Shown here: positions 41,702 to 47,751 of the stretch, piece by piece | Position numbering within the stretch: position 1 is the first letter of the stretch | Layout: every line of letters starts with the position of its first letter | Assembly (NCBI GenBank): GCA_902771635.1 | Contig: CACXXW010000021.1 | Location: 1 to 49,722 of the forward strand | From: an uncultured Bacteroidia bacterium | Lineage (GTDB): Bacteria; Bacteroidota; Bacteroidia; Bacteroidales; F082 | DNA: 49,722 nt | Reading direction: 5' to 3' | Notes under the pieces: generated by a model | The model's database searches: none | Told to the model about the DNA's origin: nothing | Seen by the model: the letters and a program-made list of their open reading frames with translations, nothing else | Translations under genes and position numbers: made by a program

Positions 41702-44700
41702 ATGTACAAAATCGAGAAACACCCCATCTTGGACATCCCGCAGGAAGACCTTGTGGAATTCCAATATGAAGGAAAGACCGTCAAAGGTCAGCGCGGCAAA
41801 ACCATCGCCGCCGCCCTTCACCAAGCCGGTTATCCCGTCCACAGCCACTCGCTCGACGGCCGCAACCGAAGCCTCAACTGCGGCATCGGCAAATGCGGTG
41901 CCTGCGAGATGCTGGTCGATGGCAAGATCCGCCGTATCTGCATCACCAAAGTCGATGGCGTCAAGGAAGTGCGCCGCATCGACAAGGAGGACACCATCCT
42001 TCCCGAGCCCAAGGAGCAGCAGCCCCGCGAAGTGAAGGTCTACAAGACCCAGGTCGCCATCATCGGTGCCGGTCCCGCGGGTCTCGCATGCCGCGAGCAA
42101 CTCAACGCCTTCGGCATCAGCAACATCGTCGTCGACAACAACGCCAACATCGGCGGCCAGTTCAATATGCAGACCCACCAGTTCTTCTTCTTCGAGAAAG
42201 AGAAGAAATTCGGCGGCATGCGTGGCTTCGACATCGCTAAGACCCTGGCGGGCGACAACCACGAAGGCATCCTGCTGAACAACACCGTTTGGGACCTGCT
42301 TGAAGGCGGTCGCGTGGCCATCAAGAACATCGTCACTGGCGAGATTGGCTACATCGACGCACAACACCTAGTGGTGGCCACGGGTGCCGTGCCCTTCATG
42401 CCGACCTTCGAGAACGATGATGTGCCGGGTGTCTATACCGCCGCTGTGTTCCAGAAGATGATGAACCAAGAGCACACCTTGTTGGGTAAGAAAGTCCTCA
42501 CCGTGGGTGCTGGCAACATCGGCTACCTGACCTCCTACCAAGGCATGCAGGCTGGTGCCACCATCAAGGCCATCATCGAGGCCATGCCCCGCGAGGGCGG
42601 CTTCCCCGTGCAGGCCAACCGTGTGCGCCGTCTCGGCATCCCAATCATGACCAGCTACGTCCTGGTGCGTGCCATCCCCAACGCCGACTACACAGGCATC
42701 ACGGGCGCCGTCATCGCCAAGTGCGAGAACTTCAAGGCCATCCCTGGCACTGAGCAAGTCATCGACGACATCGACATCATCAACATCTGCACCGGCCTCA
42801 TCCCCGACAACCAACTGTTGGTGAAAGGCCGCGAGGTCTTCGGCCTCAACACCTACGGTGCCGGCGATGCCATCCGCATCGGCGAAGGCACCAGCGCCGT
42901 GCTGCGTGGCAAACAAGTCGCCTACGAGGTGGCCCAAGCCATTGGCGTGCGCTTCAACTACGACGATTATCTTGAGATTTCGAGACAATATATCGACTCG
43001 CAACAGCATCCTGTGCGTCTCCTTGAGAAGCCCAACCTGCCCACGCCCGAGCGCATGATGCAGAAGGCTTTCGTGCAGGCCGACTGTCTCTATGGCTTCG
43101 CCTGCAACCCCTGCTCGTTCAGCTGCCCGCAAGGCGCCATCACCAAGCCGTCCACCAGCAGCACGCCCACCATCGACTATAACAAGTGCATCGGCTGTAT
43201 GCTGTGCGTCTCAAGCTGCCCAGGTCTGGCCATCTTCGGCTACGATGTGCAGAAGTCGACCTGCTTCCTGCCCATCGAATATGAAGCACAAGAAGGCGCA
43301 GAGGTCTATCTCGTCGACAACGACGGCCAAAAGATTGGCGAAGGCGTCATCGAAAAAATCCTCAAGAAGTCGAACAAAACCAATGTGGCCCGTGTGAAAG
43401 CACGTTCCTCACGTCCTTCGGGCGAGGCCAGCAGAGTGTTCGAGTTGACCGATGTCAAGGGCTTCATCCTGAAAGACCGTTACAACGCCAACAAGGAACT
43501 CACCACACCGATTTCGCCCAAGAAACTGGCCGAAGGCGAGAGCGAGACCTATGTCTGCCACTGCGAGGACATCAAGCTCGACCGCGTATTGCGCGTCATC
43601 GGCAACCGCAAGACCATTTCCGTGGATGAGCTGAAACACATCACCCGTATGGGTATGGGTCCCTGCCGTGGCAAGCGTTGCATCCCACGCGCCCGTCAGA
43701 TCTTGCGTTCCTACGGCATCGAATTGGTGGGCGACGCCACACCGCGTGCCCCGCTGTCGAACCAAGTCAGCCTCGGCGACCTCTACAACCCGCACACCAA
43801 AGAGACCTTCATCTTCCCCGAAATGAACGGCGTGAAGAAAGAACAGGTCGAAGTGTTCATCGCGGGTGGCGGTATTGCGGGTAGCGCCTTGTTCCGTTAC
43901 TTCTCTGAAGCCGGCAAGAAGCCCGTGATGATCAACTACAGCCGTGGCGCTTCGTGGCGTTGCATCGGTGGCGGCCGTCCAGCCTTCTCCAACCCCGACA
44001 TCGCCGACATCGCCGTTCACAACCACGAAATCTTCAAGAAGATGCAGGCCGAGCACAACATCAACTACCACCCGACGCATTATGTCAATTTGGTACACGA
44101 TGAAGCCACCTATAACTCCTTAGACGCTTCTCGCGCATGGAGCGATGCCTACATGATTGAGCGCAAGGACTTCAAGAAGGAGATTTCGCCGCTATGGGAC
44201 GACAGCAAAGACACCTACAGCCATGCCCTTATCACCCGCGACTGCTGGCAGGCCACACCTGGCCGCGTCATCGACTACATCCGTTGGATCGGTGTGCAGC
44301 AAGGCGGTCGCTACTTCGAGGACTGCGAGCTGCTCCATGTGCAAAAGGTCGGTGGGCACTATGTCACTTTGGTACGCACCCACGAAGGTGAGTTCATCGA
44401 GTACACCTGCGACCACTTCGTCAACGCGATGGGTTGGGGTGCCGAGAAGTTCAATGACATGCTGGGCCTCGACACTGGTCTGTATCCTGTGAAGCACCAA
44501 GCCTTCATCACGCGCCGTCTGCCCATGATGGGACCCAATGGTGGCCCGCTCGACATGATCATCGACCGCCGTCACTACAAGGGCTTCAGCGCCGTCTACG
44601 GACAGCAGTGGGCCCACACTGGCCAGATCATCGGCTGCGCCAGCCCTGACACCGACGCTTATGAGGCACGCCAGAACATCAAGTACAACAGCAAGGAGTT

Positions 44701-44971
44701 CTTGGAGATCGTCTCCGAGGTCTTCGCCGAGTGGATCCCCAACTTGGGTGAAGTGAGCTTCTTGGCTTGCTGGGCCGGTCGTTACACCGAGCCGCGATAC
44801 ATCGTCGACCCGGAGGTCGGTATCCTCACCGGTTTGCGCGGCCACGGCTTCATGCTCGGCCAATACCTCGCCAAGTTATATGTGGACAAGTACCTCGGCA
44901 AGGAGGTGCCTGGCTACATGAAGGATTTGGCCTTGAGTGGCAAGGGATTGAGCGAGAACGCGTTCAAGTAA
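41702..44971 (+). CDS. Single-chain multi-cofactor FAD-dependent amino-acid dehydrogenase-like protein
   Basis: A 1089-residue protein joining parts that are often separate subunits. In order: a [2Fe-2S] plant-type domain (about 15-105; Cys60, 65, 68, 80, HcnA/SoxA-like); a FAD/NAD(P) disulfide-reductase-type domain (about 115-440; GAGPAG 122-127, VGAGNIG, GDAIRIG); two ferredoxin-like clusters (Cys462/468/471/475 and Cys496/499/502/506); a BFD-type [2Fe-2S] domain (Cys619, 621, 655, 660); and a C-terminal DAO-type FAD domain (about 718-1075; IAGGGIAGSALF). This matches hydrogen cyanide synthase HcnABC, sarcosine, opine and proline/hydroxyproline dehydrogenase complexes in one chain. Substrate unknown; it probably oxidises an amino or imino acid and passes electrons through the clusters. 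Confidence 0.88.
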   Translation: MYKIEKHPILDIPQEDLVEFQYEGKTVKGQRGKTIAAALHQAGYPVHSHSLDGRNRSLNCGIGKCGACEMLVDGKIRRICITKVDGVKEVRRIDKEDTILPEPKEQQPREVKVYKTQVAIIGAGPAGLACREQLNAFGISNIVVDNNANIGGQFNMQTHQFFFFEKEKKFGGMRGFDIAKTLAGDNHEGILLNNTVWDLLEGGRVAIKNIVTGEIGYIDAQHLVVATGAVPFMPTFENDDVPGVYTAAVFQKMMNQEHTLLGKKVLTVGAGNIGYLTSYQGMQAGATIKAIIEAMPREGGFPVQANRVRRLGIPIMTSYVLVRAIPNADYTGITGAVIAKCENFKAIPGTEQVIDDIDIINICTGLIPDNQLLVKGREVFGLNTYGAGDAIRIGEGTSAVLRGKQVAYEVAQAIGVRFNYDDYLEISRQYIDSQQHPVRLLEKPNLPTPERMMQKAFVQADCLYGFACNPCSFSCPQGAITKPSTSSTPTIDYNKCIGCMLCVSSCPGLAIFGYDVQKSTCFLPIEYEAQEGAEVYLVDNDGQKIGEGVIEKILKKSNKTNVARVKARSSRPSGEASRVFELTDVKGFILKDRYNANKELTTPISPKKLAEGESETYVCHCEDIKLDRVLRVIGNRKTISVDELKHITRMGMGPCRGKRCIPRARQILRSYGIELVGDATPRAPLSNQVSLGDLYNPHTKETFIFPEMNGVKKEQVEVFIAGGGIAGSALFRYFSEAGKKPVMINYSRGASWRCIGGGRPAFSNPDIADIAVHNHEIFKKMQAEHNINYHPTHYVNLVHDEATYNSLDASRAWSDAYMIERKDFKKEISPLWDDSKDTYSHALITRDCWQATPGRVIDYIRWIGVQQGGRYFEDCELLHVQKVGGHYVTLVRTHEGEFIEYTCDHFVNAMGWGAEKFNDMLGLDTGLYPVKHQAFITRRLPMMGPNGGPLDMIIDRRHYKGFSAVYGQQWAHTGQIIGCASPDTDAYEARQNIKYNSKEFLEIVSEVFAEWIPNLGEVSFLACWAGRYTEPRYIVDPEVGILTGLRGHGFMLGQYLAKLYVDKYLGKEVPGYMKDLALSGKGLSENAFK

Positions 44972-45001
44972 TTGAGAATTGAGAATTTACAATTGATAAT
45001 T

Positions 45002-45037
45002 AAGGCTGTCGCAGGTTTGCGGCAGCCTTATTTTATT
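45002..45037 (+). terminator. Terminator of the flavoprotein gene
   Basis: AAGGCTG(T)CGCA / TGCG(G)CAGCCTT stem with a short loop, then TATTTTATT. Possibly also used by the convergent gene. Confidence 0.75.
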
Positions 45038-45062
45038 ATGCAATCAAATCGCATAGATAAAC

Positions 45063-46541
45063 CTATACTTCAATCATTTTCTTCGAGTCGAACCCGTTGG
45101 CAAAGTGTTCTCCTTGTGAGATGTAACCCAATTGATTGGATGTGATTTTTGTCTTGCCAATCTGCGCATTGATATTACGATGCGAATGGCCGTAAATCCA
45201 ATAGTCAATACCAGAATCAGCAATATATTCACCCAATTCCACAGTAAAAGCGCCATTGATGTTGCTGTCGCGAAACTCTTCTGCCGTACAGAGTTGCGTC
45301 GGCACATGATGGGTAAGCACAATTTTTGTTCTGGCCTTGCTCTCGGCAACCGCATGTTTCACGAACCGCAAGCAACGGTCATGTTCGTGATTGAAGTTAT
45401 CTGCATTGAGGCGATGCCCCTCATATCTAATTCGATAGAAATCGCTCACCCCTCGCTCTGTCAAGTAAACATTGTACGGTTCAATATATGACCAAAGAGT
45501 GGAAACAACGATGTCAATCTCTCCCAAGTGCACCACATTATTGTAATAGGCGTGGATGTTAGAGCGAATTTGCTTGCAATAACCATCTTGCATGGTGGAA
45601 AGATCGTAATAGCCATAAAAGTCGTGATTGCCAAAGCAAACAATCACCTTTTGATAATGCTCTGACGCCCAATCCCAAAAAGAGTATTGCGAGTAAGTGT
45701 CCTGCTTTGAATCAGGCAGGTCGAGATAGGCTGTATCGCCAACAACAAGTAAAATATCTCCTGTCACTTCCAAAGGTTGTTCCTCAAGCCATTTCCTATT
45801 CTGAGGAAACTCGAGATGCAAGTCGCTGACATATTGTATTCGCAGTGATTGCGGCTTGTACTCAGCAATGATTTTCATGGTTTCCAACACCAAATCCGTG
45901 CGCTCAATCTCATCGGATGAAATGGCACATTCCAACTCCTCTGCAATATTCGGCCTTTTTAGCATCTTAGCGAACTGCTCAGAGACAAAAGATTGGACAT
46001 GTTTGTCTTCCGCCTTGAATCGATCAATGAAATCCGCACAATAATTAAGGACATACACCAAATCCTCAAAGTCTTTTGCCCCTCTCCAATCATCTCCCCC
46101 TCGCGAAAGCAACGCGTCAATTTTCGTTGCCACGTAATATATCACGGTAAGGCGATAAATGGTTTTTCCTGAAGGCAAAATACAAGGCTCTCGTTTGGCA
46201 AACCCAGGTCGATACCATTGATTACCAAACGATAGCACATCCTCATTCATCGACATCACATCCACCTTTTCGCCATTGAACAGCCATCGACAAAGAGGAG
46301 CATTGGGTGTTTGGTCGTTTTGGAAATGCTTTTCACGGAGCAGTTCCTCAAAAGCCGTATGTTCCTTGTAGGAAGTGGAGTCTACAACACAATCCACGTC
46401 AGTGGTAGTCCGTGGCTCTGTGGCAGTAGGGTCGGTCGCATACAAGCCTGCCATTGCTCCGCCGACATAAACAAGCCTATCGTTCAAGTCTTGCATCGCC
46501 TCTGCAATTTCTTGGAGGCGTTCATTATTGGTTTTCGGCAT
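45063..46541 (-). CDS. Fused nucleotidyltransferase-metallophosphoesterase
   Basis: A 492-residue protein with two catalytic domains. N-terminal (about 1-230): an AbiEii/DUF6036-type nucleotidyltransferase with GG (27-28), the R-T-T-T-D-V-D motif (Asp48, Asp50), a third acidic residue (Asp94), Lys140 and K-D-F-E-D-L (156-161). C-terminal (about 234-480): a calcineurin-like phosphoesterase with all motifs, SDLHLE (Asp240, His242), GD (268-269), GNHD (304-307), THH (His411 region) and GHSH (451-454). I know of no named family with this order. The chain overlaps the HTH gene by 17 bases. Both active sites look intact. It could nucleotidylate a cell component and reverse or process that mark, but this is inference. 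Confidence 0.85.
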   Translation of the reverse strand: MPKTNNERLQEIAEAMQDLNDRLVYVGGAMAGLYATDPTATEPRTTTDVDCVVDSTSYKEHTAFEELLREKHFQNDQTPNAPLCRWLFNGEKVDVMSMNEDVLSFGNQWYRPGFAKREPCILPSGKTIYRLTVIYYVATKIDALLSRGGDDWRGAKDFEDLVYVLNYCADFIDRFKAEDKHVQSFVSEQFAKMLKRPNIAEELECAISSDEIERTDLVLETMKIIAEYKPQSLRIQYVSDLHLEFPQNRKWLEEQPLEVTGDILLVVGDTAYLDLPDSKQDTYSQYSFWDWASEHYQKVIVCFGNHDFYGYYDLSTMQDGYCKQIRSNIHAYYNNVVHLGEIDIVVSTLWSYIEPYNVYLTERGVSDFYRIRYEGHRLNADNFNHEHDRCLRFVKHAVAESKARTKIVLTHHVPTQLCTAEEFRDSNINGAFTVELGEYIADSGIDYWIYGHSHRNINAQIGKTKITSNQLGYISQGEHFANGFDSKKMIEV

Positions 46542-47043
46542 AGCAATTCATTCTTTTGGTCAGTTCTTCAATAGCAATACTTTTTTCTCTTGCTCGGCCC
46601 ATGCGCAAAGCATCCACAATTACCAACAATTGGTAAAGTTCCTCATCGCGCATAGCTGCTTCTGGCACGGAGGGATAAAGCGGCTCGATGTGTTGACCTC
46701 GTGCGTTTCCTCTTACGTAATGCCACACATAACTCTCAGCACCATTGCTGATCGCTTCACTAATGGGTGCAGCGCTCACATAAGTAGGCACTCCCCGACC
46801 GACACGCCCTGCTTCAACAGGAAACACGTATGCGATGCCATGAATCAAGAACTCTTGCAAAGCCAACACATTCACCTTTTTTTTATGGCGGTCGATCAAT
46901 TGCGCTTTCCTACAACGCTCTAAACTCTTGCTCACATTTGACGCACTCATGCCCAACGAATCGGCTATTCCACGACTGGACATCGCCTTCCCTTGAGTGG
47001 TCGTTTTTTTTAATAAAACTACAATATCTTGTGGCAACATCAT
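46525..47043 (-). CDS. Winged-helix regulator paired with the nucleotidyltransferase-phosphoesterase
   Basis: A 172-residue protein. Residues about 1-65 form a winged helix-turn-helix domain (SSRGIADSLGMSASNVSKSLERCRKAQLID, a MarR-like recognition helix). A second domain of unknown type follows (IHGIAYVFPVEAGRVGRGVPTYVSAAPIS, YVWHYVRGNARGQHIEPLYPSVPEAAMRDEELYQLLVIVDALRMGRAREKSIAIEEL). It ends inside the next gene by a 17-base overlap. Start is the ATG pair at 47038-47043; an upstream TTG at 47053-47055 is less likely. A dyad operator lies 28-53 bases upstream, at the promoter, so negative autoregulation is likely. It may be the antitoxin-like partner. Confidence 0.8.
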   Translation of the reverse strand: MMLPQDIVVLLKKTTTQGKAMSSRGIADSLGMSASNVSKSLERCRKAQLIDRHKKKVNVLALQEFLIHGIAYVFPVEAGRVGRGVPTYVSAAPISEAISNGAESYVWHYVRGNARGQHIEPLYPSVPEAAMRDEELYQLLVIVDALRMGRAREKSIAIEELTKRMNCYAENQ

Positions 47044-47070
47044 ATTATATATCAATTATTTATAGTTAAA

Positions 47071-47096
47071 TGTTCTCTGTTCGCGAATCGAGAACA
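47071..47096. promoter_or_regulatory. Predicted operator: nested dyad symmetry
   Basis: Outer arms TGTTCTC and GAGAACA (7 bp each) flank a perfect inner palindrome, TTCGCGAA, each separated by two bases. Centre at 47083/47084, 16 bases downstream of the -7 element, overlapping the likely start site. A second dyad, GTGTT-CCT-AACAC, lies at 47139-47151 upstream. Both fit binding by the dimeric HTH protein encoded next door. Confidence 0.65.
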
Positions 47097-47111
47097 CTTG
47101 CTTTGGAAATG

Positions 47112-47119
47112 CAAAAATA
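47112..47119 (-). promoter_or_regulatory. -7 element of the HTH-nucleotidyltransferase operon
   Basis: Minus-strand TATTTTTG fits TAnnTTTG, flanked by GC-type TGCATTTCC as at other promoters here, about 69 bases before the ATG. Confidence 0.6.
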
Positions 47120-47152
47120 GACATTTTCTTTGAATTTGGTGTTCCTAACACG

Positions 47153-47184
47153 AAAAAAGCCCAAGAATCGCTTCTCGGGCTTTG
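47153..47184. terminator. Terminator downstream of the 47206 gene
   Basis: AAGCCC-(A/G)-AGAA / TTCT-GGGCTT arms; A run on the left gives T on the minus strand, ending the 47206-47751 gene. Divider from the HTH promoter. Confidence 0.7.
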
Positions 47185-47205
47185 TTTTAGTTTAAAAGGT
47201 TGCTA

Positions 47206-47751
47206 TTACCACTCTATTCCGATGCGCAAAGAGATGCCAGAAGGACTGATTTGTCGGGCTTCTTGGGTATGATGATATCCATCATAATAACTCTCATTGA
47301 TCTTGTCGTAATAGGTACCAGCCACCATTGCGCTGACGGCGAAGTCACGCTTGGAAGCAAAACGCACACCGAAGGCAAGGTCGCCATAGGCACCCAAACC
47401 GTCGCCGACGTATGAGCCAAGACGCAGGCTGATGATGGGGCTCACCACCCTGGTGTTGTTGAACTGATAACGCAGATTGGTGTAGAAAGGCACCAAGGCG
47501 CGGTCGTTGTTGAAGTCGACACCCAAGCCGATACCGGCATAGATATGTCCATTGAAATAAAAGCCGTGAGTGGTTGACAGGCTGATGCTATTGGGCATAT
47601 TCTTGTCGAAATGCCAGGTGTTCCCTTGTTCGATGAAGCCTTGGTAGCCACTGGGGACACGAACCTTGGCAGGGTTGGGAACATCCTTTTCTTGTGCGAA
47701 CATACTCGTTGCCATGAGAAGCATGACTAACGATAAGATTACTTTCTTCAT
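47206..47751 (-). CDS. Predicted outer-membrane beta-barrel protein
   Basis: A 181-residue protein with signal peptide (MKKVILSLVMLLMATSMFAQ) and alternating amphipathic strands: GFYFNGHIYAGIGLGVDFN, ALVPFYTNLRYQFNN, VSPIISLRLGSYVGDGLGAYGDLAFGVRFA, FAVSAMVAGTYYDKI, ending ISLRIGIEW with an aromatic terminal residue typical of outer-membrane proteins. It probably forms an 8-strand barrel. Likely the last gene of a three-gene run with 47831-48364 and 48377-48970. Function unknown. Confidence 0.75.
   Translation of the reverse strand: MKKVILSLVMLLMATSMFAQEKDVPNPAKVRVPSGYQGFIEQGNTWHFDKNMPNSISLSTTHGFYFNGHIYAGIGLGVDFNNDRALVPFYTNLRYQFNNTRVVSPIISLRLGSYVGDGLGAYGDLAFGVRFASKRDFAVSAMVAGTYYDKINESYYDGYHHTQEARQISPSGISLRIGIEW

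What the first reader, a model, noticed from the sequence alone, without database searches (positions are those of the whole stretch)
45063..47119. Autoregulated HTH / nucleotidyltransferase-phosphoesterase cassette: possible new toxin-antitoxin or defence module
Seen: two overlapping genes behind one promoter, a winged-helix protein and a single chain that carries an AbiEii/DUF6036-type nucleotidyltransferase (G27G28, Asp48/Asp50, Asp94, Lys140, Asp157/Asp160) followed by a complete calcineurin-like phosphoesterase (motifs at 240, 268, 304, 411, 451). Known: AbiE and MenT-type systems use nucleotidyltransferase toxins, often with HTH antitoxins. Inference: the phosphoesterase may remove the transferred nucleotide or act as a built-in control, making a writer-eraser on one polypeptide. 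Genes flanking it are ordinary, so it looks like an inserted cassette.
Basis: partly seen in the sequence, partly recalled or inferred. Interest (0 to 1): 0.82.

Follow-up and report, generated by a model that had tools for sequence, protein, structure and literature searches.

The report
Three-part toxin cassette with fused phosphoesterase
A gut-type bacterium carries a small gene cassette in which a repressor controls a protein that joins a nucleotide-adding enzyme, of a kind used as toxins against phages, to a phosphate-cleaving enzyme; in relatives the same phosphoesterase sits beside three different toxin-type enzymes, so it may be a shared antidote or a second weapon.

Summary
A winged-helix gene overlaps by 17 bp a 492-aa chain with an AbiEii-type nucleotidyltransferase (NTase, 1-228) and a calcineurin-like phosphoesterase (PE, 229-492). 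PADLOC lists HTH and NTase as candidate PDC-M21; PE is not in that model. Relatives add more. The same PE is the third gene behind two other HTH-NTase pairs, one with an HTH over Pfam's AbiEi_2 cut-off: 48 of the 80 best PE loci carry an NTase within 1 kb upstream. Both active sites are conserved. NTases have been lost, several in frame, while PE stayed: 6 of 19 close HTH-anchored loci, against 0 PE losses (cut-off set after seeing the data). A palindrome marks the promoters, and sister genomes show empty sites, some keeping only the palindrome or also a Fic gene. I read it as a three-part AbiE-like toxin-antitoxin/defence cassette whose PE most likely counteracts the NTase. The eraser step is unproven: many HTH-NTase pairs have no PE, and PEs without an NTase neighbour are also under purifying selection.

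The parts
46525..47043 (-). Winged-helix regulator (M21A type); the longer ORF to 47055 starts at TTG
   Evidence: PDC-M21A 5.6e-45; start inferred from relatives
45063..46541 (-). 492-aa fused NTase-phosphoesterase gene
   Evidence: intact full-length relatives in four other genomes of the genus
45858..46541 (-). NTase domain, residues 1-228, M21B/AbiEii type
   Evidence: PDC-M21B 1.6e-46; residues conserved
45066..45857 (-). Calcineurin-like phosphoesterase domain, residues 229-492
   Evidence: Metallophos 55.1 bits, cut-off 21.5; nine checked residues intact in 100 of 102 rows
46525..46541 (-). 17-bp overlap of HTH and NTase reading frames
47072..47095 (.). Palindrome, likely operator of the HTH
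47110..47119 (-). TAnnTTTG-type -7 box (consensus recalled)
   Evidence: sequence; same box upstream of 27 of 28 close HTH genes
45001..45030 (+). Terminator-like hairpin at the left border
47156..47183 (-). Terminator-like hairpin at the right border

Best explanation
This is a three-component AbiE-like toxin-antitoxin/abortive-defence cassette on two genes. Step 1 (comparative evidence): the winged-helix protein represses the operon by binding the palindrome at the promoter. Step 2 (inferred from family): the AbiEii-type NTase is the toxin and transfers a nucleotide to a host target, most likely RNA such as tRNA. Step 3 (inferred, least sure): the phosphoesterase counteracts that toxin, by cleaving off the transferred nucleotide or otherwise clearing its product, so that the fusion holds writer and eraser in a fixed 1:1 ratio; HTH and PE together hold the toxin in check until a phage disturbs the balance. 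The cassette comes and goes at a site between two convergent terminators, and hosts sometimes shed the costly NTase alone.
For: PADLOC M21A/M21B match. AbiEii/DUF1814 motifs I-IV as defined in PMC3985639 (passages): G27G28; R44 and D48-x-D50; K140...R147; K156-D157-x-x-D160 (the K is His in stand-alone relatives). NTase beside PE in 48 of 80 loci: 22 fused M21, 14 class C, 12 class B; class C HTH is AbiEi_2, 80.9 bits, cut-off 21. Pairing survives a change of order (PE before the pair in L273, L279, L280, L307) and occurs unfused with M21 in another family, G310. NTase lost with PE kept in 6 of 19 close HTH-anchored loci, PE lost in 0. dN/dS 0.071 for NTase and 0.112 for PE in fused copies. 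Palindrome. Empty sites.
Against: No toxicity, antidote or phage data. PE is absent from most HTH-NTase pairs outside the close group, so it is not generally required. PEs of the HsdM-linked clade, without NTase neighbours, have dN/dS 0.066, so PE is useful without an NTase in cis. The NTase queries were themselves picked from PE neighbours, so its zero elsewhere overstates the contrast. The cut-offs for 'close' were set after seeing the data, and losses sharing a junction may be one event. M21B itself is under Pfam's AbiEii cut-off.
Confidence: 0.45

Rival explanations
1. Two weapons under one regulator: the PE is a self-sufficient defence enzyme (acting on phage nucleic acid, nucleotides or a signal) that is often carried with, and once fused to, HTH-NTase pairs because both gain from the same repressor and the same mobile site.
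For: PE without NTase in 7 of 80 loci behind HsdM, with purifying selection in that clade; distant kinship to defence candidate PDC-S10, 27-37 bits; PE kept when NTase is lost.
Against: The repeated choice of AbiEii-like NTases as neighbours, three families and two gene orders, is more specific than general defence cargo would give.
Confidence: 0.3
2. Phospho-switch: the PE is a protein phosphatase that removes an inhibitory phosphate from the NTase's active-site Thr46, as auto-phosphorylation inactivates MenT1 at Thr39, two residues before its Asp41.
For: Thr two residues before the first catalytic Asp in 12 of 12 M21B and 6 of 6 class B rows and in RRTxDxD of 12 of 14 class C NTases; MenT1 data in PMC11375011 (passages).
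Against: That Thr may be conserved for catalysis alone; the lines for class C were mis-indexed and say nothing. A phosphatase that activates a toxin does not explain why PE outlives the NTase.
Confidence: 0.12
3. RNA end-processing pair: PE trims phosphates from broken RNA ends and the NTase adds nucleotides, a repair rather than a toxic function.
For: Phosphatase and nucleotidyltransferase domains occur together in RNA repair enzymes such as bacterial Pnkp (recalled).
Against: No kinase or ligase partner among the labelled neighbours; repeated removal of the NTase alone and an AbiEi_2 regulator in class C fit a toxin better.
Confidence: 0.06

Closest known systems
PADLOC phage-defence candidate PDC-M21 (HTH + NTase)
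   Same: Both proteins match its models at about 1e-45 in the same gene order
   Different: The model has no phosphoesterase; here one is fused to the NTase
AbiE type IV toxin-antitoxin (AbiEi/AbiEii)
   Same: HTH gene before an NTase gene; four NTase motifs; palindrome at the promoter; a class C relative with an AbiEi_2 HTH also carries the PE
   Different: Window NTase is under Pfam's AbiEii cut-off, window HTH has no AbiEi match; PE is extra
MenT/MenA NTase toxin systems
   Same: Weak NTase profile match to 8an4, an AbiEii/AbiGii-family toxin, E 0.012; Thr two before the catalytic Asp
   Different: No phosphoesterase was named in the passages of PMC11375011 that I saw
PADLOC single-gene candidate PDC-S10
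   Same: Distant homology of the N-terminal half of the PE, 27-37 bits
   Different: Only about 100-115 residues aligned; listed there as a single gene

Membership tests
PDC-M21 | M21A-type HTH | tested here: met
   151.5 bits, residues 18-169
PDC-M21 | M21B-type NTase next to it | tested here: met
   156.9 bits, residues 5-227; 17-bp overlap
AbiE (type IV TA) | NTase motifs I-IV of DUF1814 | tested here: met
   Motifs from PMC3985639 found by eye in the window; spacing of motifs I and II is longer than the 15 given there
AbiE (type IV TA) | Pfam AbiEii cut-off | tested here: not met
   12.9 bits, cut-off 22.5
AbiE (type IV TA) | AbiEi-type regulator | tested here: not met
   No AbiEi family among 15 Pfam matches of the window HTH; met by the class C relative
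AbiE (type IV TA) | Autorepression through inverted repeats | tested here: inconclusive
   Palindrome core exact in 23 of 28 and within one mismatch in 28 of 28 close promoters; binding not testable here
AbiE (type IV TA) | Toxicity of the NTase and its neutralisation | not testable with these tools
   Needs expression
Calcineurin-like phosphoesterases | Metal-binding motifs and Pfam cut-off | tested here: met
Anti-phage defence system | Protection against phage | not testable with these tools
   Class B HTH-NTase-PE or NTase-PE sets are on 10 of 28 PE-bearing viral contigs; protection itself needs plating

The most novel reading that the evidence does not exclude
The phosphoesterase is a general nucleotide eraser that undoes the product of AbiEii-superfamily NTases: an interchangeable enzymatic antidote that has been teamed with at least three HTH-NTase pairs, fused in one of them into a writer-eraser chain, and that persists alone as protection against NTase toxins met in trans.
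Probability: 0.28. Interest if true: 0.85.

Novelty: new variant of a known kind. Interest (0 to 1): 0.62.

Why it matters
AbiE-type NTases are widespread defence toxins whose targets are often unknown. An enzyme that travels with three such families, and in one case sits on the same chain, gives a direct way to learn what the NTases write: find what the phosphoesterase removes. Natural NTase deletions that keep repressor and phosphoesterase are ready-made controls.

Tried and rejected
Metabolic enzyme: rejected; the site is variable between sister genomes and the labelled neighbours of PE are mostly HTH-NTase pairs or restriction genes. Chance ORF or domain artefact: rejected by conservation and dN/dS. 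Fic as a fourth regular partner: considered when RhuM-Fic was found before PE in L041 and L053; not used as evidence for an eraser, because RhuM, DUF1016 and HsdM genes recur around PE. Rfam elements in 44900-47300: none at gathering score. PDB by sequence: no convincing PE match, weak NTase profile matches to 5uvd and 8an4, E 0.012. PHROGs: only the PE matched. GC content: 43-47% in the cassette, 56-59% to the left but 44% to the right, so no clear sign.

Literature: searches returned no paper; some searches listed 3, 1 and 5 papers, judged by title and start of abstract and not opened; (SanaTA) gave noise; led to PMC3985639 and PMC11375011, read as passages (and an outline); led to PMC13356809, where 'PDC-M' occurs once in the main text, as PDC-M13.

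Rows dropped and biases: the 80 loci are the best of at least 543 relatives found, so they favour PEs near the window's. The tree left out PEs under 235 residues, rows with over ten X, and L178-L184. The dN/dS left out L079, L082 and L137; that also left L110, L114 and L117 out of the fused group. One search's class C lines were mis-indexed.

Full report
What is there. The window is contig C21 of a 3.0-Mb, 77% complete genome; the nearest named relatives are uncultured Bacteroidales or Bacteroidia, many from rumen or gut. On the minus strand a winged-helix gene (46525 to about 47043) overlaps by 17 bp a 492-aa gene (45063-46541). Residues 5-227 match PADLOC PDC-M21B (1.6e-46), the HTH matches PDC-M21A (5.6e-45), and residues 234-455 match Metallophos (55.1 bits, cut-off 21.5). 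Pfam's AbiEii model gives only 12.9 bits, under its cut-off of 22.5. Still, the four motifs that PMC3985639 (passages) gives for AbiEii/DUF1814 can be read in the sequence: G27G28; R44 and D48-V-D50; K140...R147; K156-D157-F-E-D160. Motifs I and II are further apart than there, and the basic residue of motif IV is His in stand-alone relatives.

Relatives and neighbours. Of 173 genomes of the family, 54 had a match to the chain; the full-length fusion was in five, window included, while others had NTase or PE parts. In a named-genome scan with a PE alignment, the best 80 loci fall out as follows: 22 with NTase homology and PE in one ORF (M21 type); 3 with the M21 HTH directly before PE; 11 with a 315-330-aa HTH and/or an AbiEii-like NTase before PE (class B), 1 with that NTase broken, 2 with it missing; 14 with a roughly 200-aa HTH and a 283-aa-type NTase before PE (class C); 7 with HsdM upstream; 1 each with RhuM, an AAA_14/DUF4143 protein, a Mur ligase and a second metallophosphoesterase; 16 without a label. 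The class C HTH is AbiEi_2 (80.9 bits, cut-off 21) and its NTase scores 20.2 against AbiEii, just under cut-off. Equating class C with COG4861-COG4849 is recall. M21B and class B NTase profiles are related over 96 columns (hhalign 82%, E 1e-5). Of 28 viral-contig PE loci, 10 carry a class B NTase beside PE.

Is the pairing more than chance? With six NTase queries, 49 matches lay within 1 kb upstream of PE in 48 of the 80 loci and none in the remaining 715 kb. The queries came from PE neighbours, so this overstates the contrast; but such genes are not common: class B NTases were found in 19 of 295 and class C in 17 of 295 genomes of the order, M21 HTHs in 34 of 393. In a separate draw of 393 genomes of the order, 68 had a PE relative. 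Of the 30 loci opened, 10 show an HTH-NTase pair beside PE (in L256 the NTase is in two frames), 2 an HTH with the NTase missing or a stub (L254, L259), and 18 no HTH-NTase pair. Seen from the NTase side the link is looser: PE is in the flanks of 7 of 19 class B and 0 of 17 class C NTase-anchored loci, although class C pairs close to those are nearly absent from that draw (best match 60%). In L273, L279, L280 and L307 PE lies before the pair, and in L279 and L280 it follows HsdM; so the link survives a change of gene order. G310, in another family, has M21 HTH, M21 NTase and PE as separate neighbouring genes, and its PE groups with class B PEs.

History. In a quick tree of 102 PE rows, label A (M21) needs 12 changes (at least 4 forced by starred branches), B 7 (4), C 6 (3), D 3 (1). 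A and C are interleaved, so the pair in front of a similar PE was probably exchanged more than once, though many forks are open. The HsdM-linked PEs sit beside fused copies (98*); the tree is unrooted and does not give the direction.

NTase loss. G057, 95% identical to the window in its HTH, keeps the first seven residues of the NTase and then runs in frame into PE, which is cut by the contig end after 84 residues. G175 keeps about 34 residues, L110 and L114 about 19, L117 none that I recognise, and L079 lacks the catalytic core. The residues that remain match the start of stand-alone M21B proteins, so these are deletions. These PE-found examples cannot show PE loss; the HTH-anchored searches can. 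Among 53 M21 rows, nine HTHs are at least 67% identical to the window's: six have NTase and PE, two have lost the NTase (G057, G175), one is cut by a contig end. G310, at 53%, has all three parts. Of the other 43 rows, 38 show an NTase match and one (L225) a PE. For class B, 13 of 95 genomes have a match, at 15 distinct places: eleven closer ones have PE, seven of them whole and four with the NTase missing or truncated (two of these with a broken HTH too); the next two, at 31-34%, have an NTase and no PE; two more are an HTH alone and a fragment. So in the close groups the NTase was lost in 6 of 19 and PE in 0 of 19. A sign test gives 0.03 if all six are independent and 0.13 if they are four events; L371, L372 and perhaps L383 may be one. 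The cut-offs were set after seeing the data.

Selection. In fused copies dN/dS is 0.071 for NTase and 0.112 for PE (13 unsaturated pairs of 190). In the HsdM-linked PE clade (11 rows, 7 of them behind HsdM) it is 0.066 (36 of 55 pairs). PE thus has a use without a neighbouring NTase, the strongest point against an eraser dedicated to its own NTase. Nine PE catalytic residues are intact in 100 of 102 rows.

Regulation. The core TTCGCGAA lies upstream of 23 of 28 close HTH genes exactly and of 28 of 28 within one mismatch; at 50-54% identity of the HTH it is 13 and 15 of 19. Four control 8-mer palindromes gave no exact match, and at most 6 of 28 within one mismatch. The wider pattern GTTCNCNNTTCGCGAANNGNGAAC (one mismatch allowed) occurs at one place in 14 of 16 chosen genomes, at two in G100 and at none in G080; the reversed pattern occurs in none. 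It is still there in the NTase-deleted G057 and G175.

Site. The cassette lies between terminator-like hairpins of two convergent genes. G080 has an empty site. G095 and G098 have no cassette but keep the palindrome. G126, G113 and G097 have the palindrome and a gene for a Fic protein with a C-terminal wHTH (Pfam run on the G097 copy only); G101 shows the start of the same stretch. None of these seven genomes is among the 21 with a match to the M21 HTH.

Mechanism. Family knowledge makes the NTase a likely toxin: AbiEii mutants in motifs I-IV lose toxicity, G50A excepted (PMC3985639, passages). PE as counter-enzyme fits the pairing with three NTase families, the fusion and the one-sided losses. 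A second weapon fits the PEs without NTase. A phospho-switch is suggested by the Thr two residues before the first catalytic Asp, the position phosphorylated in MenT1 (PMC11375011, passages). I give these 0.45, 0.3 and 0.12. No structure could be predicted.

Known or new. The HTH-NTase pair is a catalogued candidate; a search for the name PDC-M21 found no paper in the library. The PE as a recurrent third part, the fusion, the partner exchange and the natural NTase deletions were not found in the searches listed under Tried and rejected, which cover open papers only. I file it as a new variant of a known kind.

Noticed in passing
L321 1368-1434; L324 1013-1085 (same site as window 45034-47150): Cassette-free sister genomes G095 and G098 keep the 24-bp operator-like palindrome, perfect in G095, although no M21 HTH was matched in them. 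Why it is kept is unexplained.
   Followed up: partly
L330 424-1437 (also L322, L335): A gene for a Fic protein with a C-terminal wHTH sits beside the same palindrome at the cassette's site, as an alternative occupant.
   Followed up: partly
L156, L265, L182, L183: PE directly or closely behind a second, different metallophosphoesterase, a recurrent pair of its own, twice on viral contigs.
   Followed up: no
L279 and L280: HsdM, PE, HTH and NTase in one row on one strand: the trio inside what looks like a type I restriction operon.
   Followed up: no
window 41702-44971(+): 1089-aa flavoprotein with Fer2_4, Pyr_redox_2, Fer4, BFD-like and DAO domains in one chain, next to the cassette.
   Followed up: no
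L039 and L040/L081: Two fused proteins have a changed NTase catalytic Asp (D94N; D50V) with an intact PE.
   Followed up: partly
G100:C144:7367-7390: Second copy of the operator-like palindrome in G100, away from its cassette.
   Followed up: no
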